Shown here: one piece after another, positions 194 through 29,300 of the stretch
Position numbering within the stretch: position 1 is the stretch's first letter
Layout of the letters: the number at the start of each line of letters is the position of its first letter
Source: Rikenella microfusus
Lineage (GTDB): Bacteria; Bacteroidota; Bacteroidia; Bacteroidales; Tenuifilaceae
Direction of reading: 5' to 3'
Assembly: GCA_020722565.1 (NCBI GenBank)
Contig: DYKO01000001.1
Coordinates: 124,001-188,000 of the forward strand
DNA: 64,000 nucleotides
The notes under the pieces: model-generated
Told to the model about the DNA's origin: nothing
Database searches by the model: none
What the model saw: the letters and a program-made list of their open reading frames with translations, nothing else
Program-made: the position numbers and the translations under genes

Positions 194-3100
194 TTAAAAC
201 TTAAAACTCAGATTAACACCAAAGCTTCGGGAGGTAGGATGCTGCCCAAACTCCAACCCCTGCACATTGGAGTTGCTAAAAGCAGTTTCCGGATCGATAT
301 GGGGTACTCGTGCGTATAAAAGGGCTAAATTGCGTCCCACTATCGATATGGAAACATCCCTTATTGAGGTTTTACCTATTTTAGGGAACGTGTACCCCAA
401 TTGAACCTCTCTCAATTTAACAAAACTTGCATCAAATATACTGGGGAAGGCAATATTATTGTTGTAAGCGGCCTTATTGAACTCTTCGGCCGATACCACA
501 ACATTATTTTCGACCCAACGACCTTGCCCATCGGGCATTACGCCCACACCAACGATTCCACCCTCGCGCCCCTTTAGGGTTTCCTTTAGCACCCCGGAAT
601 ATCTTCCCCAGGTAGTTGTCATTGAGTAAATTTCGCCTCCCCAACGGGCATCAAACAATAAGCTAAACGAAAGGTTTTTGTACCTAATAGTATTTGACAA
701 ACCAGCTATCCAGTCGGGCGTGTAATTGCCAAGGCTCTTTAAATCGCCCTGTTGGGGCAACCCATCAATATAAACAATACTACCATTTTCGTCGCGTTCA
801 AAATCGTAGCCATAAAGTTCACCAAATGGTTTACCCGGTTCAGCAATGACATTCAGGCTCCAGTAGGTATCGAGCACATACTGATCGAGCCCCGATACCA
901 ATTCTTTTACCCTGTTAGCATTTATTGCAAAGTTAAGCCCCGTGGTCCATTCAAAACCGCTTCGGGTTCGTACAGGGATTCCGTTAATTGTCAGCTCCAC
1001 TCCCCTGTTATCGATTCTACCTGCATTTACAATGGTTGAGCTATAGCCGGTGGTGGTACTAATTGGTAACCTGATTATCTGATCATAGGTACTTTGTGAG
1101 TAGTAGGTCAAATCAAAAGCCAATCGGTTCATGAAAAGCCTCACATCGGCACCTAGTTCAAACGACTGTGTGCGCTGGGGTTTAAGATTGGGATTAGGTA
1201 AATCGTTGGGAATGTATATCTGTGCAATTTTTGTACCGGCTTGCCAACCGTCGTTAAAGCGATATACGGGTTTAAGCTGGTATGGACCTGTATCGGCACC
1301 CACCTGGGCCCAACCGGCACGTAGCTTGGCAAAGCTAAATGTTCGGGTTTGGATGTCAAATAAATCGGTGAGGACTGCCGAGAGGTTGAATGAGGGATAA
1401 AAGTAGGAATTGTTTTCCGTTGGCAACGTGCTCGACCAGTCGTTACGACCGGTGAAATCGAGGAACAGCGCATTTTCCCAAACGAATTGTCCATTAAAGT
1501 AAAGGCTGTTCATCCGTTTCTTTGCAAGATAGTTCATGGTTACCACTGGAACACGGGAGTTCTCAAAGGTGTAAACATCTGGTACGCTTAACTCGGTTAT
1601 GTAGGCGCTAATGGTTTGCGCATACTGATCCATTCTGTTTCCTCCAAAATTGAAGCTAAACGAGAACTTTTCCGAGAACGTTTTATTAATCATAAACATA
1701 AAGTCGGTATTTACCTCTCGGAAGGTTTGCTTCGATTCGCTCAAAAAGCCATAAGGGCTCTCAATATCGTCGTATGCCGATTGGGCATGATTGTAGTTGG
1801 TGTAGTAATCAATACCTATGCCGGTTTTAAAGCTCAGCCATTCGGCAATTTTTATGGTTGATGTTGCTTGTCCCAGCAACCTGTCCCTATCTAAACCGTT
1901 GAGGTTTTCGTAAAGGGTAAAGTAGGGATTATTATGGTAATTGTAGTTCCAGTTTCGCTTACTTCCATCGGGATACTCGTACTGCTTAAGATCTGCCACA
2001 TCGACCTGACGACCAAACCACATAAATTGCTGCATCACATTTTGAGCGCTATATCCATATGCCGGCAGGTTTTTGCTATAGGTGTTTACATAATTGGCAC
2101 TGGCCGAAAAAGCAAGGTATCGATATGGCGATGCTGTAGCATTAATGTTCACGCTATTTTTTTCCTGATCGGTGTTGGGAATCATCCCTGTTTGCAGAAT
2201 ATTGGTGTATGAAAATCGTACAGCATAACTCTCACCTGCACCCTCAATGGCCAGATTGTTGGAATAGGTTTTGCCTATCTCAAAGAAGTTTTTTACATTA
2301 TTTGGATGCGATACCCAAGGAGTTGGCTGCCGTACTCCCCCCACTACCGGAGAGTTCCACTGGGGAATCATTAATCCAATGTCTAATTTGGGTCCCCAGC
2401 TTTCATCAACATTATCGTTTGTTCCCCCGCCTTTTCCATCGACAAAAGAAAAGAGACCATTGGAGCCCTGCCCATAAACATTCTGAAAATCGGGTAAACG
2501 AAGCGGGGTTTCAAATGTTGTATTTGAATTAAAAGTTACACCAAAACGCTTATTGGTATCGGCTGTGCGGGTTTTAATAATTATAACCCCATTGGCAGCA
2601 CGCGAGCCATAAAGAGCTGCAGCATTTGGGCCTTTAAGCACGGTAACGCTTTCAATATCGTTTGGATTGATATCGGTAATACCGCTGCCACGATTTACCC
2701 CCTCGGTATAGGTACCTCCAAAATTGGAGTTGTTCATCACCACCCCATCAACAATAAAAAGGGGTTGGTTATCGGAGTTCAACGAATTTACCCCACGCAG
2801 AACTATACGGGTTGAAGCCCCAACTGAACCCGAAGTGCTGGTTATCACCGCTCCCGATATTTTACCCTGAAGCGAGTTAATAATGTTAACCTCGGGAGTT
2901 TTAGCAATATCATCGCCCTTAACACTTTGGATGGCGTAGCCGGTGGCTTTCTCGGCCTTCATGATACCCAGCGCTGTAACCGTTACCTCCTTAACCTCAA
3001 TGGCCTCCTCTTCCATTACCACATCGATAACAGCTTTGCCAGCAATATCCACCTCAATAGTTTTGTAACCAATGTAGCTGAAGCGGAGCTTTTTAGCAAT

Positions 3101-3304
3101 GGCAGGCACTGTAATCTCGTAATGCCCCTCCATGTTGGTAACCGTTCCGGTAGCGCTACCAACCAAAATAACAGCCACACCCTGCAGGGGCCATCCCCCA
3201 TCGGACGAGGTGACAGTTCCCGTAATTCTCACAGTTTGTTGGGCAAACACATTCAAAGAACTTACAATAAAAAAAGCTGTGAGAAAGGCACACAGTTTCC
3301 TCAT
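194..3304 (-). CDS. SusC/RagA-family TonB-dependent outer-membrane transporter (susC copy 1)
   Basis: 1036 residues. A signal peptide (about 1-21, ending VFAQ) is followed by a carboxypeptidase-regulatory-like beta-sandwich domain (about 24-103), a TonB-box-like segment (EVTVTALGI), a plug domain containing GPNAAALYGSRAANGV, and a long beta-barrel ending in an aromatic residue (LSFKF). With its SusD partner it would import an oligomeric substrate across the outer membrane using TonB energy. The body is clearly paralogous to the copy at 5900-9007, with shared stretches such as TPWVSHPNNVKNFFE, so the two are an old tandem duplication. The N-terminal 100 residues differ from the other three copies in the window. 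Substrate cannot be read from sequence. Confidence 0.95.
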   Translation of the reverse strand: MRKLCAFLTAFFIVSSLNVFAQQTVRITGTVTSSDGGWPLQGVAVILVGSATGTVTNMEGHYEITVPAIAKKLRFSYIGYKTIEVDIAGKAVIDVVMEEEAIEVKEVTVTALGIMKAEKATGYAIQSVKGDDIAKTPEVNIINSLQGKISGAVITSTSGSVGASTRIVLRGVNSLNSDNQPLFIVDGVVMNNSNFGGTYTEGVNRGSGITDINPNDIESVTVLKGPNAAALYGSRAANGVIIIKTRTADTNKRFGVTFNSNTTFETPLRLPDFQNVYGQGSNGLFSFVDGKGGGTNDNVDESWGPKLDIGLMIPQWNSPVVGGVRQPTPWVSHPNNVKNFFEIGKTYSNNLAIEGAGESYAVRFSYTNILQTGMIPNTDQEKNSVNINATASPYRYLAFSASANYVNTYSKNLPAYGYSAQNVMQQFMWFGRQVDVADLKQYEYPDGSKRNWNYNYHNNPYFTLYENLNGLDRDRLLGQATSTIKIAEWLSFKTGIGIDYYTNYNHAQSAYDDIESPYGFLSESKQTFREVNTDFMFMINKTFSEKFSFSFNFGGNRMDQYAQTISAYITELSVPDVYTFENSRVPVVTMNYLAKKRMNSLYFNGQFVWENALFLDFTGRNDWSSTLPTENNSYFYPSFNLSAVLTDLFDIQTRTFSFAKLRAGWAQVGADTGPYQLKPVYRFNDGWQAGTKIAQIYIPNDLPNPNLKPQRTQSFELGADVRLFMNRLAFDLTYYSQSTYDQIIRLPISTTTGYSSTIVNAGRIDNRGVELTINGIPVRTRSGFEWTTGLNFAINANRVKELVSGLDQYVLDTYWSLNVIAEPGKPFGELYGYDFERDENGSIVYIDGLPQQGDLKSLGNYTPDWIAGLSNTIRYKNLSFSLLFDARWGGEIYSMTTTWGRYSGVLKETLKGREGGIVGVGVMPDGQGRWVENNVVVSAEEFNKAAYNNNIAFPSIFDASFVKLREVQLGYTFPKIGKTSIRDVSISIVGRNLALLYARVPHIDPETAFSNSNVQGLEFGQHPTSRSFGVNLSFKF

Positions 3305-4341: not shown

Positions 4342-5880
4342 TTAGTTTGTAGCCCACCATACAAGAGTATTCAAATCGTCAGTTCCTTGGCGCTGAATAG
4401 CCTCCTGTAGGTTTGCATTATTTCTGGCACCCTCATCGGAAGGATAAAACAAACGAACGGGTATCTTACCATCATTTACACCATCTTCTGCTGGGGTTAA
4501 AACAGGGAAACCAGTTCTTCTCCACTCAAACCATGCCTGAATCCCCTGATCAAACATGGCCAACCATTTTTGGTAACCAATTTCATAAAGATTATCACCA
4601 TAGAATCCCCACGCTCCATCACCATTGGCCATGTAGTCATTTATATAATCTTGAACTGTTAAACTAGACGGGTTTCCAAATATCTCTTCCCCTAAAGTAA
4701 CAATTTCATTACCAAACTGCTCGTACGAAGCTTTAATACCATCTTCATAGTATTGCTGTGCCGTAACGCTACCACCGGTTATATAACCCTTTAGAGTAGC
4801 CTCAGATAGAATAAACATGAGTTCGGCGTAGCTCATAAGCATTCCGGGAGCATCTGCTTTGGTAAAGTAATCACCAAGTTTAGAGGTCATTTTCAGGCCA
4901 TTACCCATGTATGCAGCAGCTTTAGCTGAGGTTAAACCATTAGGTAGCCCCACATAGTCGTTGCCACCTTCAGAGAGATTAGCATAAACCATTACCCTCC
5001 AATCTACGTATGGATTATTAGTCCACATAAAATCGATGAGGGTTTTACTTACCCTATGGTCATCGCGGGTTTTACGGTTTTCGTTTATAGGGTTATTGTT
5101 AGGATAGGAACCTAAATATTTCAAAGCAGCATTATCGGCATTGGATTCAAAAATTGGGTAATTTGTAGCAGATGTTACCAACATATTGGTCATTTGATCA
5201 GTAACAAAAGTTTCATTCTTTTTGGACATCCTAAGTAACAGACGTAAGCGTAATGAGTTGGCAAACTTCTTCCATTTTGTAATGTCATTTCCATAAAGGA
5301 TGTCCCCTTCAATTTTTGGTCCGGCTTCAACTAGTAGGGTATTAGCACTATCCAACTTAGCGATTAAACTTTCATAAATGCTTTGTTGGGTATCGTATTT
5401 AGGTGATACTATACCCATCTTGGCCTTAAACGCCTCGCTATATGGTACATCACCCCACAGGTCAGTAACCACCGACATGATGTAGGCCTGCAGCACATAT
5501 CCAACACCAAGGTAGTTGTTATGGCCACGTGCTTTAGCAATGTCAATAAGAGTTGCGACATCATTTCCAGAGGCAGCATAGAAGCTAGACCAAACGGCAT
5601 TTATTACGCTAACCCGGGGAATATACCTGTCCTCATCGGTATATTGAACCTTAGCAAGGTGTTGTACCCAGCAGGAACCAATTTCGCCGCCCAACCAAAT
5701 ATCGTATACACGGTCGGTCATACTTTCAATGGCATTAGTTAAAAGCATATTTGGAGCGGCAAGTTCTGTGGTAGGTGCGTTTTTATTGGTGTTTATATCC
5801 TCAAAATCCTTTGTACAAGATATGGCAAGCGATAACAATGCCACCACAATGAGCCCTACCCTTATATTTATTTTTCTCAT
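4342..5880 (-). CDS. SusD/RagB-family lipoprotein (partner of susC copy 2)
   Basis: About 512 residues from the second of two close ATGs (the first is at 5886). The lipobox is SLAISC. The protein then reads FEDINTNKNAP and continues with helical repeat sequence typical of SusD-like proteins, including the conserved TDLWGDVPYSEAF segment and, near the C-terminus, FEWRRTGFPVL. It would sit on the outer leaflet as the substrate-binding lid over the SusC barrel encoded just upstream (5900-9007). The gap to susC is 19 bp, consistent with co-transcription. The family is the SusD-like group common in environmental Bacteroidota. No substrate can be inferred. Confidence 0.93.
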   Translation of the reverse strand: MRKINIRVGLIVVALLSLAISCTKDFEDINTNKNAPTTELAAPNMLLTNAIESMTDRVYDIWLGGEIGSCWVQHLAKVQYTDEDRYIPRVSVINAVWSSFYAASGNDVATLIDIAKARGHNNYLGVGYVLQAYIMSVVTDLWGDVPYSEAFKAKMGIVSPKYDTQQSIYESLIAKLDSANTLLVEAGPKIEGDILYGNDITKWKKFANSLRLRLLLRMSKKNETFVTDQMTNMLVTSATNYPIFESNADNAALKYLGSYPNNNPINENRKTRDDHRVSKTLIDFMWTNNPYVDWRVMVYANLSEGGNDYVGLPNGLTSAKAAAYMGNGLKMTSKLGDYFTKADAPGMLMSYAELMFILSEATLKGYITGGSVTAQQYYEDGIKASYEQFGNEIVTLGEEIFGNPSSLTVQDYINDYMANGDGAWGFYGDNLYEIGYQKWLAMFDQGIQAWFEWRRTGFPVLTPAEDGVNDGKIPVRLFYPSDEGARNNANLQEAIQRQGTDDLNTLVWWATN

Positions 5881-5899
5881 AATCATTTGTTTTTAAAGA

Positions 5900-8800
5900 T
5901 TAAAATTTAACGCTAACATTAAATCCTAGGCTTCTTGCAGATGGAAGCTGGCCAAACTCTAAGCCCTGAACATTTGAGTTGCTGAAAGCTGATTCAGGGT
6001 CAATATGGGGCACTTTTGTGTAAAGTATAGCAAGATTTCTACCAACAACTGATATTGATAGGTCACGTATAGGAAGGTTTCCTATTTTGGGGAATGTATA
6101 ACCCAATTTAACCTCACGTAGCTTTACAAAACTTGCATCAAAAATACTAGAGTAGGCAATATTGTTGTTGAAAGCAGCCTTGTTGTATTCCTCAGCAGAA
6201 ACAACAATATCATTGGGAACCCAGGATCCATCAGGGGCTTGCTTAACGCCATCGCCTACGATACCATCTTCACGGCCAAGGAGTGTTTCTTCAAGAACAC
6301 CAGAATAACGACCCCAGGTTGTGGTCATGGTATAAATATCGCCACCCATGCGGGTATCGATTAAGAAGCTGAAATTTAAGTTTTTATAGGAAAACTCATT
6401 ATTCATACTACCAATCCAATCGGGGGTGTAGTTACCAAGAATTTTAAGATCGCCCTGTTGGGGTAAACCGTTAACATGAACAACTTTGCCATCATCATTT
6501 CTTAAGAAATCATATCCATACAGCGATCCAAATGGTTCACCAGGTATAGCCATAACCTGTAAGCTCCAGTATGAACCCAAAACGTAACGGTCAACTCCGG
6601 GAGCAAGATCTACAACCTTGTTATTATTCTTAGCATAGTTTAAAGTTAGATTCCACTCAAAACCAGAGGAGGTTTTAACAGGTACCAAATTTAATGATAC
6701 TTCTATACCGCTATTATTAATTTGTCCTGCATTGATGTTTTTATAGAGGTAACCACTAGCTGGAGAAATGGGCACACTGATAATTTGATCGTAAGTTTTT
6801 TGGTTATAATAGGTAATATCAAGATTAACACGATTCATAAAGAACCTGAAATTACCACCAATTTCAATTGAGTTGGTATATTGAGGTTTTAGCTCAAGGT
6901 TTGGTAGCGTATTAGGTACGTACATGTTTAGCAATTTGGTTTGATCGTTCCAACCATCACCAAAAGCCATGGTTTCTTGTAGCTGATATGGCGAGGTATC
7001 GTCACCAACTTGTGCCCAACTTGCACGTAACTTAGCAAAACTCAAAACATCCGATTCTATTGGGAATAAATCGGTAAGAATACCAGATAAGCTAAATGAT
7101 GGATAGAAATAGGAGTTATTCCCCTCAGGAAGCGTACTTGACCAATCGTTACGCCCTGTAAAATCTAGGAATAGGGCATTGCGCCATGCAAATTGACCAC
7201 TGTAATACAAGCTGTTTATACGTTTTTGCGACATATAGTTGCTGGTACGCTGTGGAACTTTTGCGTTTGATAAGGTGTAAACTCCAGGTACGGCAAGTTC
7301 ATCAGCTCCGCCAAAAAGATTTTGGTAGAACTGATCCATTTTGTTTCCACCAAAGTTTAGAGTAAAATCAAGATCCTCGGTTAACTTCTTATTAATTAAG
7401 AATAAGAAATCGGTATTAACCTCACGGAAGGTAGTTTTATTCTCATAGTAGTATCCATACCTATTATCTATATCACCCCATGCAGCACGGCTTGTAGCAT
7501 GGTTAGTGTAATAGTCTGCACCTATACCAACACGAGCACTTAACCAATCGGTAAACTTGAAGCTTAATTTAGTATTACCGTAAAAACGGTCGCGACGGTT
7601 GCCGTTTAAGTTTTCGTGTAGGGTAAAATATGGGTTATTATGGTAGTTATAGTTCCAGTTACGTTTTGAGCCATCGGGATAGGTATATGTTTTTAAGTCT
7701 GCAATATCAACCTGACGACCAAACCAGAAGAACTGCTGCATTACATTTTGTGCATCGTAACCATAAGCAGGAATATTATTACTATATGTGTTAACATAGT
7801 TTCCAACAGCAGTAACAGTTAAACGCTTATGAGGGGTTACGCTTGCATTAAGTGAAAAGTTATTCTTTTCTTGATCGGTATTGGGAATCATCCCCTTTTG
7901 AGTAGTATTGGTGTATGATAAGCGGAACGAAGAATTTTCGCCTCCACCGTCAACCGCAATGTTATTTGTATAGGTTTGACCTAGTTCAAAAAAGTTTTTA
8001 ACATTATTGGGGTGCGATACCCATGGGGTGGCTGTTCTTACATCATTTATAACAGGTGAATTCCATTGAGGTATATAAAGTCCAACATCGAGTTTTGGGC
8101 CCCAACTTTCGTCGGTACCATCATTAATACCACCACCTTTACCATCATAAAACATAAAAGCACCACCTGAGCCTTGCCCATATTCATTTTGAAAGGAGGG
8201 TAAGCGTAATGGAGTCTCAAAGGTTGAAGTGCTGTTAATTGTTACACCTAAACCTTTACCTTTCTGTCCGCTCTTGGTAGTAATAATAATAACACCATTG
8301 GCAGCTCGTGAACCGTATAAGGCTGCAGCATTAGGACCTTTAAGTACTGATATGCTTTCGATATCATTAGGGTTAATGTCGTTGATACCACTACCACGGT
8401 TAACTCCCTCATTAGATGTATTCCCAAAGTTACTGTTGTTAATAACCACGTTATCAACAACAATAAGGGGTTGGTTATCGCCCGATAAGGAGTTGGCACC
8501 ACGAAGTACTATACGCGATGAAGCTCCCACTGCGCCCGAAGTGTTAGTAATGATTGCACCTGCAATCTTCCCCTGTAAGGAGTTTACCACATTAGTTTCA
8601 CGCGCCTTGCTGATTTCTTCACCTTTTACACTTTGAATGGCATAACCTGTAGCCTTTTCTGCTTTTTTAATACCCAACGCGGTAACCACAACCTCCTGCA
8701 TCTCAACAGTTTCGGACTCCATTACAACATCCACAACGGAGCGGCCGGCAATGGCAACCTCCTGGGTTTTGAAGCCCACAAAGCTAAAGGTGAGGGCTTG

Positions 8801-9007
8801 AGCAGTGGTGGGTACATTTAACTCGTACTTACCATCGGCATTAGTGGTAATACCAATAGTTGTACCCTTAACAAACACTGAAACACCCGGCATGGGCATT
8901 CCATCCTCGGAACTGGTAACCGTTCCGGTAATCCTTACCGTTTGCGCCTGAACCAGTGTAATGCCAACAAGCAGCAAACCTGCAAGAAAAACGCTTAGTT
9001 TTTTCAT
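5900..9007 (-). CDS. SusC/RagA-family TonB-dependent transporter (susC copy 2)
   Basis: 1035 residues with the same architecture as copy 1: signal peptide ending LVQAQ (about 1-22), carboxypeptidase-regulatory-like domain (about 24-100), TonB-box-like EVVVTALGI, plug with GPNAAALYGSRAANGV, and a barrel ending VSVKF. It is a mosaic. From about residue 105 onward it resembles copy 1 closely (GYAIQSVKGEEI, ESWGPKLDVGL). Its first 71 residues are instead identical to those of copies 3 and 4, and the DNA from 8791 to 9090 is identical to 13974-14273. First gene of a susC-susD-lipoprotein operon. Confidence 0.96.
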   Translation of the reverse strand: MKKLSVFLAGLLLVGITLVQAQTVRITGTVTSSEDGMPMPGVSVFVKGTTIGITTNADGKYELNVPTTAQALTFSFVGFKTQEVAIAGRSVVDVVMESETVEMQEVVVTALGIKKAEKATGYAIQSVKGEEISKARETNVVNSLQGKIAGAIITNTSGAVGASSRIVLRGANSLSGDNQPLIVVDNVVINNSNFGNTSNEGVNRGSGINDINPNDIESISVLKGPNAAALYGSRAANGVIIITTKSGQKGKGLGVTINSTSTFETPLRLPSFQNEYGQGSGGAFMFYDGKGGGINDGTDESWGPKLDVGLYIPQWNSPVINDVRTATPWVSHPNNVKNFFELGQTYTNNIAVDGGGENSSFRLSYTNTTQKGMIPNTDQEKNNFSLNASVTPHKRLTVTAVGNYVNTYSNNIPAYGYDAQNVMQQFFWFGRQVDIADLKTYTYPDGSKRNWNYNYHNNPYFTLHENLNGNRRDRFYGNTKLSFKFTDWLSARVGIGADYYTNHATSRAAWGDIDNRYGYYYENKTTFREVNTDFLFLINKKLTEDLDFTLNFGGNKMDQFYQNLFGGADELAVPGVYTLSNAKVPQRTSNYMSQKRINSLYYSGQFAWRNALFLDFTGRNDWSSTLPEGNNSYFYPSFSLSGILTDLFPIESDVLSFAKLRASWAQVGDDTSPYQLQETMAFGDGWNDQTKLLNMYVPNTLPNLELKPQYTNSIEIGGNFRFFMNRVNLDITYYNQKTYDQIISVPISPASGYLYKNINAGQINNSGIEVSLNLVPVKTSSGFEWNLTLNYAKNNNKVVDLAPGVDRYVLGSYWSLQVMAIPGEPFGSLYGYDFLRNDDGKVVHVNGLPQQGDLKILGNYTPDWIGSMNNEFSYKNLNFSFLIDTRMGGDIYTMTTTWGRYSGVLEETLLGREDGIVGDGVKQAPDGSWVPNDIVVSAEEYNKAAFNNNIAYSSIFDASFVKLREVKLGYTFPKIGNLPIRDLSISVVGRNLAILYTKVPHIDPESAFSNSNVQGLEFGQLPSARSLGFNVSVKF

Positions 9008-9090
9008 AGAACAAGTTTTAGGTTTACAATAGAGATTAGTAAATTTTCAACAGCGCTAAACTATGAAAATGATTTGGCATAAGCAAGAAA
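8791..9090 (-). repeat. susC 5' cassette, copy A (300 bp, identical to copy B)
   Basis: These 300 bp are identical base for base to 13974-14273. The block covers codons 1 to about 72 of susC, the leader, the likely promoter and only a few bases upstream of its -33 element. A 224-bp part (8808-9031) is also identical to 29296-29519. Immediately outside the block the sequences diverge on both sides. Such exact identity between otherwise divergent paralogues points to recent duplication or gene conversion. Confidence 0.93.
9056..9087 (-). promoter_or_regulatory. Candidate promoter of susC copy 2
   Basis: On the minus strand TAGTTTAG (9063-9056) is one mismatch from TAnnTTTG, and CTTG (9087-9084) lies 20 bases upstream in place of TTTG. 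The leader would be about 42 bases, close to that predicted for susC copy 1. Exactly the same elements occur upstream of copy 3 because they fall inside the duplicated cassette. Confidence 0.4.
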
Positions 9091-9380
9091 ATGATATAAC
9101 TTTTTTTACTATAACGGTTTACCAAAATTATGTTTAAGATATATTCTTTATATGTAAAATAAATTGTCTAAAATGTTTTCATGAACTACAATGTTATTTA
9201 TTAGCCAATTCAAAAAAAATAAATCAATAAATCAACATCTTTTTAAATACAAAAATTACAAAACTTTATTTAATAAAAGGTAATATCAACAAAATTTATT
9301 TGTAAAAGGTAAATGCTTTTGGAGACAGAAATAACAAACTGCTTTATACTTAACTTTTCAGGTTTAAATAGTACTGCTAA

Positions 9381-9418
9381 AATAAACAAGGGTGCCCCTT
9401 CTGGCACCCTTGTTTATT
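9381..9418 (-). terminator. Rho-independent terminator after susD copy 3
   Basis: A perfect 16-bp stem (9381-9396 with 9403-9418) closes a 6-base loop. The core is GGGTGCC/GGCACCC with AT-rich flanks, so the transcript ends in a U-rich strand. It starts 22 bp past the susD stop at 9440. Confidence 0.88.
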
Positions 9419-9439
9419 ACAATTAAATTACCCTTTTTA

Positions 9440-10882
9440 CTAGGGGACTAATTCTTCACCACCAGCCCACCAAACCTTAGTAGTATATATATAGTCTAAA
9501 TCTGTTTGGGGAACATTTTTATTAGAACTCATTTCGCTTAAAGCCCATGGGAAACGGTTAACAAAACCTACGGTTGAATTGTTAGGGTTGTGCATTTCTG
9601 GAATGCCTGTTCTGCGATAGTCATTATAGGCTTCAATAGCTTCATGTTCGTATAACGCTATATACTTTTGGGTTAAAATCTCATTTAACTCATTACCTAA
9701 CAAACGGGGGGTAACCTCATTGGTAAAATAATTATCTGCCTCAGTATCACTCAAACCTTTACTAGCAAAAGCTGCTCTTATAGCATCATGGAGTGTTGTT
9801 TGCCAAGATGCAACAGAAGTTCTAAATTCAGCTTCTGCCTTGATGAACAATAATTCATGATAGGTCATTAAAGGTGTTGGTGCAGTGGCACCGTTAATGG
9901 TAAGCAACGACTGCGAATAGGTTCCACCTTGGGTTTCTGTTGCTGTTCCATTTGGAGCAGGAACAATCGTACCCCCTATCAATGAAAAGTATACATTCAT
10001 TCTGGGGTCATTTCTATCATTCATCAGGTCATAGAGTGTTTGACCTACGGACAAATGGGTTCTGTCATTTAAAAATTGGTACCAAGGATTCTCAGCGGTA
10101 GCGGTATTTTCATATTTAGCAAACTTCATTTCCTCAGCAGCCGAGGTGAATGCTCCATCACCTATAGCATCTAAAGCATTTTGAGCAGCACTTGCATCAC
10201 GGTTCACCAAACGCATCCAGTAACGAGCTTTGAGGGAGTTGGCAGCACGTATCCATGAGGCTTTATTATTTGCAAAGGTTCCGCCATAAATGTAGTCAAC
10301 TGCTGAAAGACCAGTAGTTGCCATGTCCAGGTTACTAATAGCACTATCGAGCATTACAAAAATTTTGGGATAAATTTCGCTCTGCTTGTCGTATTTTGGC
10401 TGCTTAATAATTGTCCCCTGCAATGCCTCTGTCCAGGGTACCTCACCCCACATATCAGTAGCTACAGCTAAATTATAGGCCGTAAGAACATATGCGATGC
10501 CTCTTGCCCAGCGATTAGTGGGTTCTGTTCCATTAATAGGATCGGTTTTATCCAAAACAAATTTCAAATTTTTAAGAACCTCATAAAGGCTACTCCAATT
10601 ATTGTTCATTAAGGAATTTGAAGTTTGACCTACACGCTTATCTGCAGAAGCATGTTGTCCCCAAGTACCTGCACTATGTTCAATATACACCGATGAGTAC
10701 CAAGCAATATCGGTTCCAGTAGTCTCAAATGCTGTTTTCAAACCACAGTCAGTAATTATGTAGTCTGCTGTCATCTCTGTGGTTTCGTTTTTTTCCTTAT
10801 TGATATCGTCCATCACCTCTTCGCTGCAGCTAAAAAGCAAAGGAGTGAAGGCCGCCAGTAAAAGAATTCTATTTATTTTCAT
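9440..10882 (-). CDS. SusD/RagB-family lipoprotein (partner of susC copy 3)
   Basis: 480 residues. Lipobox is LLFSC with Cys at 19. The body shows SusD features: an early SSVYIEHSAGTWGQ segment, NRWARGIAYVLTAYNLAVATDMWGEVPWTEAL, and a C-terminal AIEAYNDYRRTGIPEM. It would be anchored to the outer membrane surface and bind substrate for the SusC encoded 20 bp upstream (10903-14190). It is clearly diverged from the SusD at 4342-5880, so the two systems probably take different substrates. Ends at a strong terminator (9381-9418). Confidence 0.94.
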   Translation of the reverse strand: MKINRILLLAAFTPLLFSCSEEVMDDINKEKNETTEMTADYIITDCGLKTAFETTGTDIAWYSSVYIEHSAGTWGQHASADKRVGQTSNSLMNNNWSSLYEVLKNLKFVLDKTDPINGTEPTNRWARGIAYVLTAYNLAVATDMWGEVPWTEALQGTIIKQPKYDKQSEIYPKIFVMLDSAISNLDMATTGLSAVDYIYGGTFANNKASWIRAANSLKARYWMRLVNRDASAAQNALDAIGDGAFTSAAEEMKFAKYENTATAENPWYQFLNDRTHLSVGQTLYDLMNDRNDPRMNVYFSLIGGTIVPAPNGTATETQGGTYSQSLLTINGATAPTPLMTYHELLFIKAEAEFRTSVASWQTTLHDAIRAAFASKGLSDTEADNYFTNEVTPRLLGNELNEILTQKYIALYEHEAIEAYNDYRRTGIPEMHNPNNSTVGFVNRFPWALSEMSSNKNVPQTDLDYIYTTKVWWAGGEELVP

Positions 10883-10902
10883 ATTTCTTCAATTATTATA
10901 GA

Positions 10903-13900
10903 TTAAAATGTTAGGTTAAGAGTGAAGCCATAAGATGTGGTTTGCGGCAACGACATGTAATCGAAACCACCCTGCTGATTACCCTGACCCTGTGAAGTTT
11001 CGGGGTCGAAGTTGGGAAGGGTTGTCCAAAGTAAGATATTACGAGCAACAAAACTTACGTTAGCACGCTTGATAAGCAAAGGATTAACCCATTTGTTGGG
11101 CAGGGTTACACCAAATGCAACTTCGCGTAACTTTACAAATGATGTTTCATATATAGCAGCTTCGGCTAAATCTCCTAAAACATCGAGAAATAAATCGGGG
11201 TATGCCCATACGTCATTGGGCCCACCTCTGCGAATGTCGTTGGGTTCTCCGTTGCTTTTATAACCTGGCCAAATAAATCCATCAGGATCCAAACGCCACT
11301 CTTCTGTCTTTTTAGATGAACCGTAAAGATCCATCAAACGATTTGAACCGGAATACATTTGGCCACCCTGTTTCCAATCAATCTGAGCACTTAAAGTAAA
11401 GTTTTTGAAAAAGGTAATACTTGTGTTAAAGCCAACAAGAAAATCGGGTGAAACTTCGCCTATTTTGCCAAATTCACCAATTATAGGCATACCATAATAC
11501 GGGCTAGTAGGATCATCTTCTACAAGAATGCGTCCTTGATCGTCGCGTAAAAAGCGCTCCCCGTAAATAGCAGGATAGGTATCGCCAGCGGAAGCACGTA
11601 TGTTAGGGGTTACGTAACCACCCAGGAAGATGTCCTCAACGCCAGGAGCTAACTCAACACATTTATTCACAATTTTTGTAAAGTTAACTTGTAGGTTCCA
11701 ATCAAAGTTCTTCATTTGAACCGGAACCGCATTGAGAACAATTTCGTGACCCTTCGAGGTCATTTTACCTGCATTCATAATTGCTGAACTGTAACCAGTT
11801 GAACCAGCCAAGGGAACTGCAAATATTTGATCACTTGCAACCTGATCGAAGTAGTTATAGTCAATGCCCAACCTATTCTTTAAGAACTTCAGTTCAACAC
11901 CAATTTCGTAACTTTTGGTATTCTGAGGTTTCAAATTAGGGTCATATATTGTACTCGAAGGTTGATAACCAGTAATGCCCCCAAGAGGGTAAACTATTCC
12001 ATCGTCAAGGAAACCCGAACCAGCACCTCCGGTTACATAAACAGGCTCAACATATGTACCTGGTTGACCAACCTCAGCGTAGGATGCCCGGATCTTACCA
12101 AACGAAAGAATATTATTATCCTTTAATGCACCAAGTTCAGTAAATAGGAAACTTAGTGAAGCGGAAGGATAGAAGAATGAACGATTACCATGGGGCATAG
12201 TTGAAACTATATCGTAACGTCCGGTAGCATTTAAGAATAGCATGTTCAAATAATCCACTGAAAGATTACCGAAGAAGCCTACAGTTCGGCTGTGCCCAAT
12301 ACCGTAATCTGCCGTTTGTGTTTTGGTATTGCTCATATTATTCCACCCGGGAATGGTAAAATCGGTACCAGTCATTGAATATGACTCACTCTGGTTATCT
12401 TGAATTTCGTTACCTACCAACAGGTTAGCATTTAGTTGCTCAGTAAATTTGTAATCGAAACTCATGGTAAGCAAGGAGTTGATATTCCTACGAGTTACGC
12501 CATACTGGCTAATTGAACCTCCAACTGGAGCGATGTATGCATACGGATCGCCAGCCTTTCCTGGATATGGATACTGGTTCCACGCAGGTAAAGATTGTCC
12601 TGTTGCAGTACTACCCATTTGGTAAAGATCGAGGTTATCGTTGGTATAGGTGTCAATACCCAGTTGATATTTAATTGTACTCCACTCAAAAGGTTTAAAC
12701 TGAATGTAGGTATTTCCAAAAAAGCGCTTTACCTGCTCCTGGAAAATATTGTTCTCAATAGCCCAACGTGGGTTTTCACCTACTGCACCGCGACGGTAAC
12801 TAATTTGACGATACTTGCCAAATGGTCCCTCCTGATGGTAAGGAGTACCCATGAGATCGAACGATGCTGGTGCACCGTAAACAGTGAACAGCCAGCTAGA
12901 GTTACCAGAGGGCACCTTGCGAATTTTTGAATCTACATAGTTCCCGCTAAAACCGACATTCCATTTATCAGCAAGTTTAAAATCACCGGCCATTTTTGCA
13001 TTGTAACGGTCCATACCGGTATTGGCAATAATACCATTCTGGTTTGTTGAACCCAAGCCCACAGCATAGTTTCCAAATTTGGTAGCATTTGAAATATTAA
13101 TGCTGTTATTATAGGTATAGCCATTGTTGGAATAGAACTCCTTAGGGTTGTTGTATGCTTTTGGAGTAACCCATTTCCCTTTATAGGGGTCGAAAAATTC
13201 TCCACTGTGATTTGTAGGATCTTGAACATTCCCACCATAAAACAAATATGCGTCATCGGGTAACTTCGAGATCCTAGGACCCCATGAAAAACTGAATGCA
13301 GGATAAAAGAAAAGATCGGATTCATCAGTAGCGCTACCCCAGTAGTAACCCTGAGCAAAGGTTTGATTAACCTCTGGAAGACGAGCAACTACATCCGTGG
13401 TAACATTTGAAGTAACGGTTACTACTGGCTTCCCAAGTTCTGCACCTTTTCCCTTCTTAGTAGTAATAACAATAACACCGTTAGATGCACGTGTACCATA
13501 AAGTGCAGCAGCTGCTTGACCCTTAAGAACGTTGATTGACTCAATTTCATTAGGGTCAATGTCGAGAGCACGATTTGAGTATGCAGCGCCTGTAACATTC
13601 TGACCATAGTCAGCGTTCGAGGAAATAGGCATACCATCTACTACGTATAGCGGTTCATTATTACCACTGAAGGAACGAGCACCACGGATAAGAATTGTTG
13701 AAGGGGCTCCTGGCATACCTGAAGATTGGCGAATTTCAACCCCTGCAACCTTACCAGAAAGTGCTGTCATAACATTAGGGTTGTTAGCCTTAACCAAATC
13801 TTCGCCCTTTACGTCCTGAACAGTATAACCCAAGGCTTTTTTCTGGCGTGTAATACCTAGGGCGGTAACAACAACCTCACCCATCTGAATAGCTTCGGTT

Positions 13901-14190
13901 TCCATTACCACATCAATAACCGAACGGCCGGCAATGGCAACCTCCTGGGTTTTGAAGCCCACAAAACTAAAATTGAGGGCTTGAGCAGTGGTGGGTACAT
14001 TTAACTCGTACTTACCATCGGCATTAGTGGTAATACCAATAGTTGTACCCTTAACAAACACTGAAACACCCGGCATGGGCATTCCATCCTCGGAACTGGT
14101 AACCGTTCCGGTAATCCTTACCGTTTGCGCCTGAACCAGTGTAATGCCAACAAGCAGCAAACCTGCAAGAAAAACGCTTAGTTTTTTCAT
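10903..14190 (-). CDS. SusC/RagA-family TonB-dependent transporter (susC copy 3)
   Basis: 1095 residues, the longest of the four copies. Signal peptide about 1-22, carboxypeptidase-regulatory-like domain about 24-100, TonB-box-like EVVVTALGI, plug with GQAAAALYGTRASNGVIVIT, and a barrel ending TLNLTF. The first 71 residues and the DNA 13974-14273 are identical to copy 2, but beyond residue 110 the two are only distantly related (GYTVQDVKGEDLVKANNPNV against GYAIQSVKGEEISKARETNV). The barrel includes extended loops with many aromatic and glycine residues, normal for the family. Forms an operon with the SusD gene at 9440-10882. Confidence 0.96.
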   Translation of the reverse strand: MKKLSVFLAGLLLVGITLVQAQTVRITGTVTSSEDGMPMPGVSVFVKGTTIGITTNADGKYELNVPTTAQALNFSFVGFKTQEVAIAGRSVIDVVMETEAIQMGEVVVTALGITRQKKALGYTVQDVKGEDLVKANNPNVMTALSGKVAGVEIRQSSGMPGAPSTILIRGARSFSGNNEPLYVVDGMPISSNADYGQNVTGAAYSNRALDIDPNEIESINVLKGQAAAALYGTRASNGVIVITTKKGKGAELGKPVVTVTSNVTTDVVARLPEVNQTFAQGYYWGSATDESDLFFYPAFSFSWGPRISKLPDDAYLFYGGNVQDPTNHSGEFFDPYKGKWVTPKAYNNPKEFYSNNGYTYNNSINISNATKFGNYAVGLGSTNQNGIIANTGMDRYNAKMAGDFKLADKWNVGFSGNYVDSKIRKVPSGNSSWLFTVYGAPASFDLMGTPYHQEGPFGKYRQISYRRGAVGENPRWAIENNIFQEQVKRFFGNTYIQFKPFEWSTIKYQLGIDTYTNDNLDLYQMGSTATGQSLPAWNQYPYPGKAGDPYAYIAPVGGSISQYGVTRRNINSLLTMSFDYKFTEQLNANLLVGNEIQDNQSESYSMTGTDFTIPGWNNMSNTKTQTADYGIGHSRTVGFFGNLSVDYLNMLFLNATGRYDIVSTMPHGNRSFFYPSASLSFLFTELGALKDNNILSFGKIRASYAEVGQPGTYVEPVYVTGGAGSGFLDDGIVYPLGGITGYQPSSTIYDPNLKPQNTKSYEIGVELKFLKNRLGIDYNYFDQVASDQIFAVPLAGSTGYSSAIMNAGKMTSKGHEIVLNAVPVQMKNFDWNLQVNFTKIVNKCVELAPGVEDIFLGGYVTPNIRASAGDTYPAIYGERFLRDDQGRILVEDDPTSPYYGMPIIGEFGKIGEVSPDFLVGFNTSITFFKNFTLSAQIDWKQGGQMYSGSNRLMDLYGSSKKTEEWRLDPDGFIWPGYKSNGEPNDIRRGGPNDVWAYPDLFLDVLGDLAEAAIYETSFVKLREVAFGVTLPNKWVNPLLIKRANVSFVARNILLWTTLPNFDPETSQGQGNQQGGFDYMSLPQTTSYGFTLNLTF

Positions 14191-14273
14191 AGAACAAGTT
14201 TTAGGTTTACAATAGAGATTAGTAAATTTTCAACAGCGCTAAACTATGAAAATGATTTGGCATAAGCAAGAAA
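13974..14273 (-). repeat. susC 5' cassette, copy B (300 bp, identical to copy A)
   Basis: Identical to 8791-9090, in the same orientation and 5183 bp away. Recombination between the two copies would remove exactly one susC-susD pair (the copy 3 body and its susD) and leave a functional junction, since promoter, leader and start codon are inside the repeat. Bases beyond 14273 diverge apart from a short degenerate ATAACTTTTTTTA stretch. Confidence 0.93.
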
Positions 14274-20044: not shown

Positions 20045-20049
20045 ACTTT

Positions 20050-20616: not shown

Positions 20617-20638
20617 AATTCAGGAAGTGACAAACTTA

Positions 20639-21517: not shown

Positions 21518-21541
21518 AGCTATCTAAAATATTGTCTACTG

Positions 21542-21549
21542 CAAAAGTA
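21542..21549 (-). promoter_or_regulatory. Candidate -7 element of the yicC-gmk-nadD unit
   Basis: On the minus strand TACTTTTG (21549-21542) is a perfect TAnnTTTG, about 25 bases before the yicC ATG. I find no good -33 match at the expected distance. Confidence 0.4.
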
Positions 21550-21659
21550 CCCAAAATTCTTTACCTCTTAACACGAATTAGCTGAAAAAGATTCTTCCAT
21601 CAGCTTATTAATAAATTATTTAAAAAAAATAATTTTGCGGACAAATTTTTAATAACAAA

Positions 21660-23468: not shown

Positions 23469-23539
23469 CAATGTTTGCCCGCATTAATTTTTGATTTATA
23501 TGGGTTTGGTAAACTTAAAAAAATGAATTGGTATTTACA

Positions 23540-24901: not shown

Positions 24902-26350
24902 TTATGGGTTCTGATCGGATTCAGCAATCAAAGGATTGTTATCAATTTCTGTCTGAGGAATCTTATAGATAAATACGGGATCTTCAGCAGGAATAACATT
25001 ACCGGGTATTGCAGGGAAAATATGGTTTGTTCTATTAAGTCCCTTTTTAAGCCTCATGATATCATAGAATGCAAACCCTTCGCCCCAAAGCTCAATTCTT
25101 CGTTCTAAAAGAATTCTGTCAATTAATGCTTGACCGGTTTCAGTTACAGTTGGAACAGGAGCTCTAAACCTTGCATTCCATAGTTCCTGTAAGAGGCCTT
25201 GAGCAGTTGGTTCATTAGCACCACCCAAACGAGCATAAGCCTCAGCCGCTATAAGGAGCATCTCCTCAGGACGCATCATAACATAATCGGCATTGAATTC
25301 TTTATCGCCCGCTGCAGCAAACTTATAATTAATATAAACAGGTACACCGCCTGAAACAGTTGGATTCAATAATTCATCGCGTCGTATGTCTCCGGTTTGC
25401 ATCTGGGTAAATAGAGTATGGCATAAATATTTTGGGCTATATCCTAAACCTGCATACCCTCCAATCGTCATATCTAAATGAGAGAAGAATGAGGCATAAA
25501 TAGTGGATTGCTCTTCATTTACAGGTAATCCCCACATCCAAACCATCTCATCTTTGTTATCAAAACCAGCTTTATACTGATCGATAGAGTTCAGGGAGTA
25601 AGCTTGACGGGCATCATTAGCATGGGAGGCTGCATTATTCCAATCGTTCATAACAAGAGCCACTCTAGCCCTTATGCCATGAGCAACAGATAGATCCACC
25701 TCGGAAATATCGCGACGATCAATATTTGCCTCAGTAAATAGAGTTATGGCTTCATCCAAATCAGATGTGATAAGGTCATAAACCTGTTGAACAGTTGCTC
25801 TTGGTTTTCCATCGTTTGTCGGTTCTGTATAAACTGGGATACCGGCATCATTCTGATGACCAACATAGGTCTGCTGGAAATGCTGTATTAGCCTAAAGTA
25901 AGCATAAGCTCTTAATGTTAGCGCTTGCGCCTTTATGTGTTTCTTTTGCTCTTCAGTAGCATTGGTAGCTTCGTCATAATGGGCAATTACCTCATTTAAG
26001 TTTCTTATGCCTCTATAAAAAAGGCTCCAAACATAATTAGGCCTTCTGTAGGTAGCCTCCCTATTGTCAATAGTATAATCATATCTAAACCAGTGTAATC
26101 GTCCTACAACGATATCTTCGCCCATAAGATCAGATACCAAATCAATAGCTTTAACACCAAACTGATCGTGATAACCATGGTAGTCTCTCCAATCACGGGT
26201 AACACCATCTATAACAGCCTTTGCTCCCTCGATATTAGTATATACCTTGTCATCGCTAATAGATGCCGACGGACTAGTTTCCAGGAAATCATCGGAGCAC
26301 GAAACCATTAGCCCGGCAAGCAATAGGTATGTTAAAAATTTTATTTTCAT
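24902..26350 (-). CDS. SusD/RagB-family lipoprotein (partner of susC copy 4)
   Basis: 482 residues with lipobox LMVSC (Cys 18) followed by SDDFLETSPSASISDDKVYTN, a typical RagB/SusD opening. Tetratricopeptide-like helices follow (AQALTLRAYAYFRLIQHF), then DYVMMRPEEMLLIAAEAYARLG and the C-terminal ERRIELWGEGFAFYDIMRLKKG, all standard for the canonical SusD family. It differs in type from the SusD-like proteins at 4342 and 9440. Starts 13 bp after its susC and would bind the substrate at the cell surface. Confidence 0.96.
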   Translation of the reverse strand: MKIKFLTYLLLAGLMVSCSDDFLETSPSASISDDKVYTNIEGAKAVIDGVTRDWRDYHGYHDQFGVKAIDLVSDLMGEDIVVGRLHWFRYDYTIDNREATYRRPNYVWSLFYRGIRNLNEVIAHYDEATNATEEQKKHIKAQALTLRAYAYFRLIQHFQQTYVGHQNDAGIPVYTEPTNDGKPRATVQQVYDLITSDLDEAITLFTEANIDRRDISEVDLSVAHGIRARVALVMNDWNNAASHANDARQAYSLNSIDQYKAGFDNKDEMVWMWGLPVNEEQSTIYASFFSHLDMTIGGYAGLGYSPKYLCHTLFTQMQTGDIRRDELLNPTVSGGVPVYINYKFAAAGDKEFNADYVMMRPEEMLLIAAEAYARLGGANEPTAQGLLQELWNARFRAPVPTVTETGQALIDRILLERRIELWGEGFAFYDIMRLKKGLNRTNHIFPAIPGNVIPAEDPVFIYKIPQTEIDNNPLIAESDQNP

Positions 26351-26363
26351 ATCCTATCTCCTT

Positions 26364-29300
26364 TTAGAAATTTATGTTAATACCAAATGCTATAGTTCTT
26401 AGTGGTGAATATACATTATCCAAGTCACCACTAATCGATTGCTGCGGATCTAAACCTTTACGTTTGGACTTGAGATAAAGATTAGTTCCTGTAACAAAAA
26501 TTCTAGCATTTGTAATACCGTAATTATTTAAGAATTTAGTTGGCAGAGTGTAGCCAAAAGTTAGATTTTTAAAGCTGATGTAATCAGCGTCAGTTAAAAA
26601 TCTGTCTGAAGTAGCATTAACATTCTGATCATAATCATTTATAGGAATGTTACTGGTAGAATTATCTGGTGTCCAAGCATTTAAAATATCCCTATGGAAG
26701 TTTGTTCCATTGGTTAGGTTGCCATGCATTAAAGATGCATATGGGCTATCATAAACCTGACCACCTATACCAAATGTAATTAAGAACGATAGGTCAAAGT
26801 TTTTATATTTAAAAGTATTGGTAACCCCCCCAACTAAATCAGGAATTGATGAGGTACCAGTGTAATAACGGGTTGCAGTTCCGTAATTGTCAGTAGTAAC
26901 AACGCTATCAACAACAACCTCATTTGTAACAGGATCGATATGTGTTACATCCATATACCACAGCGATTTGCCGTCGGTGGGATCAACTCCAGCAAACTTT
27001 CGCATATAGTAATCGTAGATGCTATGGCCAACCATCCATTTTTTATTACCATTAATCATCTCTTTCTGAGGGAGTTTGGTAATCTCATTCTTGTAATGGC
27101 TTAGGTTTACATCTAGAAACCATGAGAAATCCCTAGCGTTAATAATATTAGCATTCAGTTCAATATCGTATCCCCTATTTTCAACAGCTCCAATATTGGC
27201 ATCATACCCACTAAAACCGGTTGAGGGAGGGAGAGGTTGGGTAAACAATAGGTCATCACTTTTTCTGATGTAATACTCAAAATTGAAGCCAATTTTATCG
27301 AAAACCCTTAACTCGATGCCAGTGTTAATCTGAATGTTCTTTTCCCAAGTTAGATTTGGAGTTCCAAGACGTGAAAGCAAGAATCCTGCATAACCTAGGT
27401 TAGGATATCCGGTTGAGTATAAAGCTTGATATGCATAATATCCAACTTGATCGTTCCCTGTAGTACCATAACTTGCTTTCAGTCGAGCATTATTCAACCA
27501 AGTAAAGCCTTTTAGGAAATCCTCTTCGCTAATTCTCCAAGAACCACCAACAGACCAGAATTTACCCCAACGAGTATCTCTATGGAATCGTGATGAACCA
27601 TCGGTCCTATAACTTAACGATAGGTAATATTTACCTTGGTAATCATAGTTCACACGAGCCAAATAGCTTTCCAAACGTAAATTTGATTCATAAGAACCAG
27701 ATGATTCGTTTGTGGCTGCAGCATCCAATTCATAAAGTTTAGGTAATGGGAAACCTGTACGAGTAGCGGTTAGGTAATTATAAATGTACTGATAACTTTC
27801 ATGCCCAATCAAAGCGTCGATATTATGCTCGTTGAATGATTTGTTATAGTATAAGAGTTGGTTAGCTGATAGCGAAAATGAACGCCCATAATCTCGAGTG
27901 GAACGTCCATTAAACGATTGGGCATCACCAACCTCCATATTTTGATGGGTTAAACCTAAATAACCATTATAATCTACACTCCCATTTACTTGTAATTTAA
28001 AATCTTTCAGGAAGATGATTTCAGAAAATCCTCTAGCAGAAACATTATCATCCTTATAAACACGTTTATCAAGAGCTATTGTTCCCAAAGGATTGCTGTT
28101 TGAGCTATACAAACGAGCCCTACCAAAACTGTTTCCATAGTCATATTGTTTTTTCCCCTGTGGATCTAATACCAATTCACCGGTATTTGGATCTCTCAAA
28201 TAAACAGGGTAAATAGGCGCAATCATTCTGGACCACATAAAGGTGTTTACATAGGCACTACCAGAAGATACAGGATAGTTTTGTTCAGAATTAGAAGCAC
28301 CTAGATTCAATCCTAACTTGAACCAATCCTTAAGCTGGTGCTCATTATTTAAACGAATGCTATATCGCTTGTAATTAGAGGACTGAACAACACCATCTTC
28401 ATTTAGATAGTTTCCTGATAGATAGTATTTAGATTTATCTGTACCACCACTAACCGATACTAAATAATCCTGGCGAACCCCAGTCTGATGCAATTCATCG
28501 TACCAATCATCGCTCCAAAGAACCTCATGATTAGGATTAAGTTTACCATCGGTACCAACAACAAACTCACCAGTAGGAACCTTAAATGGATTATAGCCAC
28601 CCATATACGTATCTACAAGGTTTGTTGATGCGTTTGTACGCGCTGTTGCATCATCCATGGATTGAGATAAATTGTAATTATAAATCTTCTGCCATAAAAC
28701 TTCCATGTATTCTTTGCTGTTGAGTTTATCATACTCAGGGATTCCCCTTGTGCTAATCCCTACATTTGCCACAGCAGTAAATAGGGTTCTATCTTTCTTA
28801 CCCTTTTTGGTGGTAATCATTATAATACCATTAGCAGCACGCGAACCATAGAGTGATGTAGCTGATGCATCCTTAAGAACCGAGATATTCTCGATATCCT
28901 GAGCAGGGATACTATTAATATCACCTGAGAATGGGAAGCCATCAACAACATACAAAGGCGCAGCAGAAGCATTTATAGAACCAATACCACGAATGCGAAT
29001 GGTAGCTGTAGTACCTGGTTGCCCAAGACCGGATGTAACCTGAACGCCAGATGACAAACCTTCGAGAGCTTTGGTTACATTTGACACCTGAATCTCTTGC
29101 AACTTTTCGGTTTTTACTGCAGATGCGGAACCTGTAAATGACTCTTTTTTAAACGTACCATAAGGAGCAACCACTACAACCTCCTCAATTTGCTTTGACT
29201 CAGGGTTCATTACCACATCAATAACAGAACGACCTGCAATGGCAACATCCTGAGTTGTAAAACCCACAAAGCTAAAGGTTAAAGTTTGAGCAGTAGTGGG

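What the first reader, a model, noticed from the sequence alone, without database searches (positions are those of the whole stretch)
8791..14273. Identical 300-bp promoter-leader-signal-domain cassette at the 5' ends of two susC genes
Bases 8791-9090 and 13974-14273 are identical over 300 bp (seen directly), although the gene bodies beyond residue about 110 are only distantly related. The tract ends a few bases upstream of the shared -33 element and about 72 codons into the gene, so it is a self-contained expression and export unit. The copies are 5183 bp apart in direct orientation; recombination would delete precisely one susC-susD pair and keep the other expressed. It may be a gene-conversion hot spot or an exchangeable front end for SusC diversity.
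Basis: partly seen in the sequence, partly recalled or inferred. Interest (0 to 1): 0.72.

Follow-up and report, generated by a model that had tools for sequence, protein, structure and literature searches.

The report
Shared front end on swapped nutrient receptors
In this group of bacteria several unrelated outer-membrane nutrient receptors carry the same front end, in this genome kept nearly identical by recombination, while the receptor barrel behind it differs or is replaced over evolution, which gives a way to ask what that poorly understood front end does.

Summary
Bases 8791-9090 and 13974-14273 are identical over exactly 300 bp. The shared unit is promoter, leader, signal peptide and N-terminal extension (NTE) domain; similarity fades near the TonB-box/plug border. 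Slow drift does not explain it: 0 of 44 four-fold sites differ between the two heads, while orthologous bodies in sister species differ at 39-57%. In the genus, heads cluster by genome and bodies do not. Best reading: recent gene conversion between linked susC paralogues. Near-identity is found in 2 of 14 genomes with comparable pairs, so it is episodic. At one syntenic locus in five species the head's first 40 codons are 94-100% identical, while in nine of ten pairs barrels are 31-39% and SusD 28-37% alike. Leader and codons 2-9 are conserved at nucleotide level between genera. No inverted copy and no recombinase in 56 of 57 window ORFs: not a B. fragilis-type shufflon. Deletion through the repeats is possible, not shown.

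The parts
8791..9090 (-). head copy B: promoter-like region, leader, signal peptide and most of the NTE domain of susC-B
   Evidence: exact 300-bp identity with copy C; exact 224 bp with copy D
13974..14273 (-). head copy C, same content, susC-C
   Evidence: 234 bp listed as 100%; 224 exact, one mismatch at +201
8981..9029 (-). element conserved at nucleotide level across much of the family: about -22 to +27 around the start codon of susC-B (also at 14164-14212 and 29469-29517)
   Evidence: 22-mer leader in 21 of 27 family genomes, 33 hits, all at susC heads when compared, 0 control hits; codons 2-9 same codon in 78% of same-residue comparisons between genera against 34-55% in the other windows
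9056..9086 (-). promoter-like TTG (9084-9086) and TAGTTTAG (9056-9063), 20 nt apart, of susC-B; same at 14239-14269 for susC-C
   Evidence: read by eye in the sequence; the Bacteroidota -33/-7 consensus is recalled, not tested
5900..9007 (-). susC-B (SusC/RagA TonB-linked outer membrane protein, TIGR04056)
4342..5886 (-). susD-B (PF12771 SusD-like_2)
10903..14190 (-). susC-C; best match among solved structures by sequence is BT_2264 (5fq6)
9440..10882 (-). susD-C (PF12771)
26364..29495 (-). susC-D, third bearer of the head
24902..26350 (-). susD-D (PF14322, PF07980)
194..3304 (-). susC-A: body 67% identical to susC-B but a different head (59% nt); a natural contrast

Best explanation
The 300-bp identity is the most recent trace of gene conversion (RecA-type homologous recombination, inferred) between linked susC paralogues that share a modular front end: leader, signal peptide and NTE domain up to the TonB box. 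Shown by comparison: the head is homogenised in this genome, the bodies are old and unrelated, and across the family the head tends to go with the host lineage while the barrel and SusD behind it differ or are replaced. Inferred: the head is retained because it is the host-adapted part (translation start, export, NTE, coupling to a shared periplasmic partner such as TonB), so that any new barrel-SusD pair behind it is expressed and energised at once; the shared heads are also homology at which such swaps, tandem gains and losses can happen. The leader and first codons are held by selection on the nucleotide sequence, probably for translation initiation or its control.
For: Four-fold sites in codons 1-72: 0/44 differ (B/C), 1/42 (B/D), 1/42 (C/D); in the bodies of the six orthologue pairs compared 0.39-0.57 differ. 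Each body has its own orthologue in another species of the genus (B 92%, C 91%, D 89% aa), so the bodies were distinct before the species split. Tree of 12 heads: genome labels need 6 changes (minimum 5; 0 of 200 shuffles as low); body tree 10 changes (200 of 200 shuffles as low). AU tests: heads reject the B-orthologue clade (p 0.010) and the D-orthologue clade (p 0.0029); bodies reject a B+C+D clade (p 1.8e-6). Copy C carries the promoter-leader type of B, while its orthologue G3_x has the other type. Family, all 703 pairs of the 38 heads kept: same genus, different body: median head 86.6% nt (76 pairs); different genus, same body: 74.8% (12 pairs). Second case of near-identity: genome G21, four heads 96.6-99.5% alike over 85-215 nt (contig-cut) with bodies of 26-52% aa. 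Converse case: in G16 one body (88% aa over the part held) sits behind two heads 63% alike in nt. Syntenic locus in five species: upstream FTCD gene 75-91% nt, codons 1-40 94-100% nt, body 31-39% and SusD 28-37% aa in 9 of 10 pairs.
Against: Near-identity of heads is seen in only 2 (G0, G21) of the 14 genomes with a comparable pair. In G2, G3 and G6 the two heads are 85-91% alike, no closer than some heads of different species, and the head tree of the genus does not join the pairs of G2 and G3. In the family tree of 38 heads the labels are clustered overall (25 changes, shuffled mean 32.2, 0 of 200 as low), but only 4 of 13 listed genomes (G0, G27, G28, G30) have all their heads together. AU tests did not reject the orthologue clade for C (p 0.19) or E (p 0.060). 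Same-genus heads are nearly as alike with different bodies (86.6%) as with the same body (88.0%; 9 pairs), so part of the likeness is conservation, not conversion; the 55% identity cut also left out the most unlike heads. In the five-species locus likeness falls in steps (codons 41-110 at 73-81% in nine pairs), not at one sharp border. One of six sister genomes (G001) has no head match. Pairs are not independent. Population data, reads and experiments are lacking; RecA is inferred.
Confidence: 0.8

Rival explanations
1. Birth and death by unequal crossing-over: recombination between direct-repeat heads gains or deletes whole body-SusD units, so the heads are alike because units are joined there; species differ because each kept other members of an ancestral array. 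It can act together with conversion.
For: Heads are in one orientation; arrays of 2-3 susC genes recur in the family; species of one genus keep different bodies; G30 has two pairs where its sisters have one.
Against: Does not by itself overwrite promoter and head of C with the B type while C keeps its place before B, nor give D a shared head with another promoter. No junction was seen.
Confidence: 0.35
2. Purifying selection alone keeps the heads alike, without recombination.
For: Leader and codons 2-9 are conserved at nucleotide level between genera; the NTE is functionally important in B. thetaiotaomicron (PMC7782687, passages read).
Against: Outside codons 2-9 the same residue is written with the same codon in only 34-55% of comparisons between genera, yet 0 of 44 four-fold sites differ between copies B and C; head and body trees conflict.
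Confidence: 0.05
3. Site-specific shufflon of the B. fragilis region-EE type, in which an invertase moves susC-susD pairs behind one promoter.
For: Same genes, and the repeats also cover the start codon (PMC5729914, passages read).
Against: All three copies in this genome are in direct orientation; each gene has its own start and a promoter-like region (by eye); no recombinase among 56 of the 57 window ORFs scanned with Pfam; tract ends differ between pairs. The rest of the genome was not scanned for invertases.
Confidence: 0.03
4. Assembly artefact: collapse or misjoining of the repeats.
For: The genome is a draft of 32 contigs; in G21 three of four heads lie at contig ends.
Against: The flanks of the copies are unique; C followed by its SusD and another susC unit recurs in sister assembly G3, and B before A in G2; the third copy differs in promoter and 3' part.
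Confidence: 0.06

Closest known systems
Bacteroides fragilis susC/ragA intergenic shufflon (region EE)
   Same: susC-susD pairs, repeats overlapping the susC start codon, change of receptor behind a front end (PMC5729914, passages read; the invertase paper PMC2747901 is not held).
   Different: There inverted repeats and an invertible promoter; here direct repeats, a promoter-like region on each gene, no recombinase found in the window, and exchange inferred on evolutionary time.
Concerted evolution of outer-membrane protein paralogues by gene conversion (for example Helicobacter pylori bab genes)
   Same: Paralogues homogenised in part of the gene while other parts differ (recalled; only a search listing seen).
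   Different: Here only the 5' module is homogenised, and the bodies are 26-36% identical in this genome.
Porphyromonas gingivalis ragAB alleles
   Same: A SusC/SusD-type pair with different alleles at one locus and a highly conserved ragA N-terminus with signal peptide and CarbopepD_reg_2 domain (PMC11817032, passages read).
   Different: Alleles of one gene within one species; no homogenised 5' tract between paralogues is described in the passages read.
FopS/RbpB control of susC translation start in B. thetaiotaomicron
   Same: The start-codon region of susC mRNAs is a shared control target (PMC11697453, passages read).
   Different: No such RNA was found here: 0 Rfam matches in the window and no antisense match above control in seven genomes; the genome outside the window was not searched with Rfam.

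Membership tests
SusC/RagA TonB-linked outer membrane proteins | whole-protein match to TIGR04056 above its cut-off | tested here: met
   susC-A, B, C and D at 625-824 bits, cut-off 368
SusC/RagA TonB-linked outer membrane proteins | NTE (PF13715) followed by plug (PF07715), SusD-type gene downstream | tested here: met
   B, C and D; downstream of A the window ends
Polysaccharide utilisation locus | glycan-active enzymes beside the susCD pair | tested here: not met
   none among 56 of 57 window ORFs scanned with Pfam; an M1 peptidase gene stands beside susC-C
Gene conversion / concerted evolution | paralogues in one genome more alike than orthologues inside a tract, not outside | tested here: met
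   G0; near-identity also in G21; not met in G2, G3, G6
Gene conversion / concerted evolution | tree conflict between tract and rest of the gene | tested here: met
   orthologue clade rejected for B and D, not for C and E
Gene conversion / concerted evolution | non-reciprocal transfer with a known donor | tested here: inconclusive
   upstream part B-like at 18 of 25 informative columns (14 of 21 without gap columns); coding part mixed, 15 B-like and 17 C-like of 34
B. fragilis susC shufflon | inverted repeats at the susC start | tested here: not met
   all copies in one orientation
B. fragilis susC shufflon | invertase gene nearby | tested here: not met
   none in 56 of 57 window ORFs; an enzyme encoded elsewhere is not excluded
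sRNA-controlled susC leader (FopS type) | a complementary small RNA | tested here: inconclusive
   17-nt wobble pattern at control level in 7 genomes; short seeds cannot be seen this way

The most novel reading that the evidence does not exclude
The susC head of this family works as a universal socket: a promoter-leader-signal-NTE module, kept uniform by conversion and read by a dedicated trans-acting regulator at the conserved start-codon element, behind which recombination at the head plugs in foreign barrel-SusD pairs. It would be a receptor-swapping system that runs on homologous recombination and needs no recombinase of its own.
Probability: 0.25. Interest if true: 0.8.

Novelty: new variant of a known kind. 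Interest (0 to 1): 0.6.

Why it matters
The NTE domain of SusC proteins has no known function, although its deletion is severe in B. thetaiotaomicron BT1763 (PMC7782687, passages read). Here one NTE-bearing head family is kept on many unrelated barrels, which suggests that the NTE answers to something shared in the cell and not to the cargo; heads and bodies can be swapped to test that. The conserved start-codon element gives a concrete target for a regulator. The hypervariable barrel-SusD pair at a fixed locus is a clean case for studying how surface receptors are exchanged between bacteria, for food or against phages.

Tried and rejected
Chance identity and slow paralogue drift were rejected. 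A shufflon was considered and not supported. A search for an antisense RNA to the leader gave counts like the reversed control. Rfam found nothing in the window. The leader RNA with the first codons does not fold clearly better than shuffles (z -1.1, 30 of 200 as good). A scan of 79 named loci (143 ORF pairs) for further genes with shared heads found 8 pairs above the score set; three of them (L083, L087, L089) are contigs of family members by length, and the best of the rest is L150 at 75% nt. That sample was chosen by likeness to this head, and no survey of the phylum was made. The leader outside the family: 6 of 291 genomes of the order sample had one hit each, against 3 hits of the reversed control in the whole sample of 295; 2 of the 6 stand before a SusC-like frame, 4 do not. 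Paper searches on SusC with gene conversion, concerted evolution, recombination or hypervariable loci showed no description of this head homogenisation in the listings; only open-licence PMC papers are searched, and I read passages of seven papers, none in full.

Rows dropped: of 53 head-like hits in the family loci, 38 went into the family tree and the 703 pairs. The 15 left out (named) were partial, short (coding part up to 600 nt) or under 55% identity to the query; two contig-edge heads of G21 were kept. The heads of A-type genes and of the G16 converse case are among those left out, so the medians describe heads of one kind. G5_y (contig edge) was left out of the 12-head tree. One search used 29 of the 38 heads. 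One search grouped 51 of the 53 genes (single linkage, 55% aa over more than 200 residues).
Full report
WHAT IS THERE. The genes lie on the minus strand; the tract covers 83 nt upstream of the ATG and 217 nt of the gene. A search of the assembly (2.84 Mb, 32 contigs) finds a third copy in the same window, at the start of the susC gene 26364-29495. It is exact over 224 bp, from -24 to +200, and has another promoter region. All three are in the same orientation. Four susC genes lie in the window (A 194-3304, B 5900-9007, C 10903-14190, D 26364-29495), all matching TIGR04056; B, C and D are followed by susD-type genes. No other head-sharing group was found among the 21 susC-type N-termini detected in this genome.

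ANATOMY. The shared part is a TTG/TAGTTTAG promoter-like pair (by eye; B and C only), a leader of about 40 nt (start of transcription inferred), the signal peptide and the CarbopepD_reg_2 or NTE domain (residues 26-108). Beyond the exact tract B and C stay 84% alike in nt over codons 73-110 and then fall to the level of unrelated bodies, 35.6% aa. So the natural module ends near the TonB box, before the plug domain (residue 118 on), and the 300-bp edges are tract edges. The D tract has another upstream end (24 against 83 nt) and an earlier downstream end (200 against 217 nt), as expected of homologous recombination and not of a site-specific cassette.

CONVERSION, NOT DRIFT. Five of six other genomes of the genus carry the head twice at 80-90% nt; one (G001) has none. 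The bodies behind the 13 heads of the genus fall into seven groups that are mostly 22-41% alike in aa (the higher values between groups are short local matches): B (G0, G2; 92%), C (G0, G3; 91%), D (G0, G6; 89%), E (G3, G4, G5; 88-93%), F (G5, G6; 82%), and two single ones. In codons 1-72, 0 of 44 four-fold sites differ between B and C and 1 of 42 between D and either; in the bodies of the six orthologue pairs 0.39-0.57 of four-fold sites differ. The head tree clusters by genome (6 changes, minimum 5, 0 of 200 shuffles as low); the body tree does not (10 changes, 200 of 200 shuffles as low). AU tests on heads reject B with its orthologue (p 0.010) and D with its orthologue (p 0.0029), not C (0.19) or E (0.060); bodies reject B+C+D (1.8e-6). 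Against a simple picture, the pairs in G2, G3 and G6 are 85-91% alike, no closer than some pairs between species. Conversion therefore looks episodic.

MOSAIC. Two promoter-leader types exist in the genus. Where two tandem genes lie on one contig (G2, G3, G6) the first gene has one type and the second the other (read by eye). C of the window has the type of B, though its orthologue in G3 has the other. At columns where the orthologues of B and C differ, the upstream part of B and C is B-like at 18 of 25 (14 of 21 without gap columns), and the coding part is mixed, 15 B-like and 17 C-like of 34. So the shared tract looks like a mosaic and the donor cannot be named.

BEYOND THE GENUS. Of 27 genomes of the family, 24 have a DNA match to the block. 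Genome G21 (the goat-rumen MAG RGIG3720, inferred from the same contig numbers and lengths as the genome of L094) has four heads 96.6-99.5% alike over 85-215 nt with bodies at 26-52% aa, three of them at contig ends. G16 shows the converse: one body at 88% aa (over the part held) behind heads at 63% nt. Over all 703 pairs of the 38 heads kept, same genus with different bodies gives a median head identity of 86.6% (76 pairs), different genus with the same body 74.8% (12 pairs), same genus with the same body 88.0% (9 pairs). Pairs are not independent. In the family tree only 4 of 13 listed genomes have all their heads together, though labels cluster overall (25 changes, shuffled mean 32.2, 0 of 200 as low). 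Heads tend to go with the host lineage, bodies do not. Among 51 susC-type genes with a related N-terminus 28 body groups at 55% aa were counted.

ONE LOCUS, MANY RECEPTORS. In five species of one genus (G29-G33) the head sits at the same place, 255-258 nt behind a formiminotransferase-cyclodeaminase (FTCD) gene. Downstream of the susC-susD pair all five have the same PAPS-reductase-type gene, cut by the end of the stretch in G29 and G30; in G30 it follows a second susC-susD pair, in G33 one more frame. For nine of ten pairs the FTCD gene is 75-82% alike in nt, codons 1-40 94-97%, codons 41-110 73-81%, the body 31-39% aa and SusD 28-37% aa. For the close pair G31/G32 the values are 91, 100, 97, 78 and 73. 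The body-SusD pair thus differs as a unit, while the start of the gene is better conserved than its housekeeping neighbour. Whether by import of foreign pairs or by loss of different members of an array cannot be told.

THE LEADER. The 22-mer TAAACCTAAAAYTTGTTCTATG with up to two mismatches occurs 33 times in 21 of 27 family genomes, with no hit of the reversed control; comparing coordinates, all 33 are starts of susC heads. In comparisons between genera (29 heads, 316 pairs), residues of codons 2-9 that agree also share the codon in 1570 of 2023 cases (0.78); other windows give 0.34-0.55. Conversion inside genomes does not explain conservation between genera, so this points to selection on the nucleotide sequence, probably for translation initiation or its control. 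In B. thetaiotaomicron FopS sRNAs bind the susC start region (PMC11697453, passages read); no counterpart was found here.

MECHANISM. Shown: homogenised heads, old bodies, different bodies behind a conserved head at one locus. Inferred: RecA-type recombination, and retention of the head because export, NTE function and energy coupling are matched to the host. The authors of PMC7782687 (passages read) suggest that the NTE may give specificity for TonB variants; a head shared by unrelated barrels fits that idea and does not prove it. The substrate is unknown. C is nearest to BT_2264 among solved structures, an M1 peptidase gene stands beside C, and no glycan-active enzyme was seen in 56 of 57 ORFs scanned, so peptides are a fair guess.

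KNOWN AND NEW. The genes are ordinary members of the SusC/RagA family. Gene conversion in outer-membrane paralogues (recalled) and susC exchange by inversion are known. I found no description of a homogenised susC front end with replaced barrels in the listings, which cover open-licence papers only. I rate it a new variant of a known kind.

Noticed in passing
window 30090-61614: A block of about 31 kb (WbqC-type gene to an ECF sigma factor gene) is inverted relative to the susC array when compared with G2 and G6; in those two genomes the sigma factor gene stands next to the first susC of the array.
   Followed up: partly
window 14593-24631: About 10 kb with an M1 peptidase, a C-5 cytosine methyltransferase and housekeeping genes (guanylate kinase, YicC-type) lies between susC-C and susC-D; none of these genes was matched in the 80-100 kb fetched around the arrays of G2 and G6.
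   Followed up: partly
window 194-3304 and 5900-9007: susC-A and susC-B are body paralogues (67% aa) with quite different heads (59% nt), so one of them probably changed its front end.
   Followed up: partly
L192 near 7222 and L206 near 677: Two susC heads in relatives (G17, G21) have a reading frame broken inside or just after the head; whether real or an assembly fault is unknown.
   Followed up: no
window 51679-56277: A 1532-residue protein with no Pfam match, 64-67% identical to counterparts in G6 and G2.
   Followed up: no
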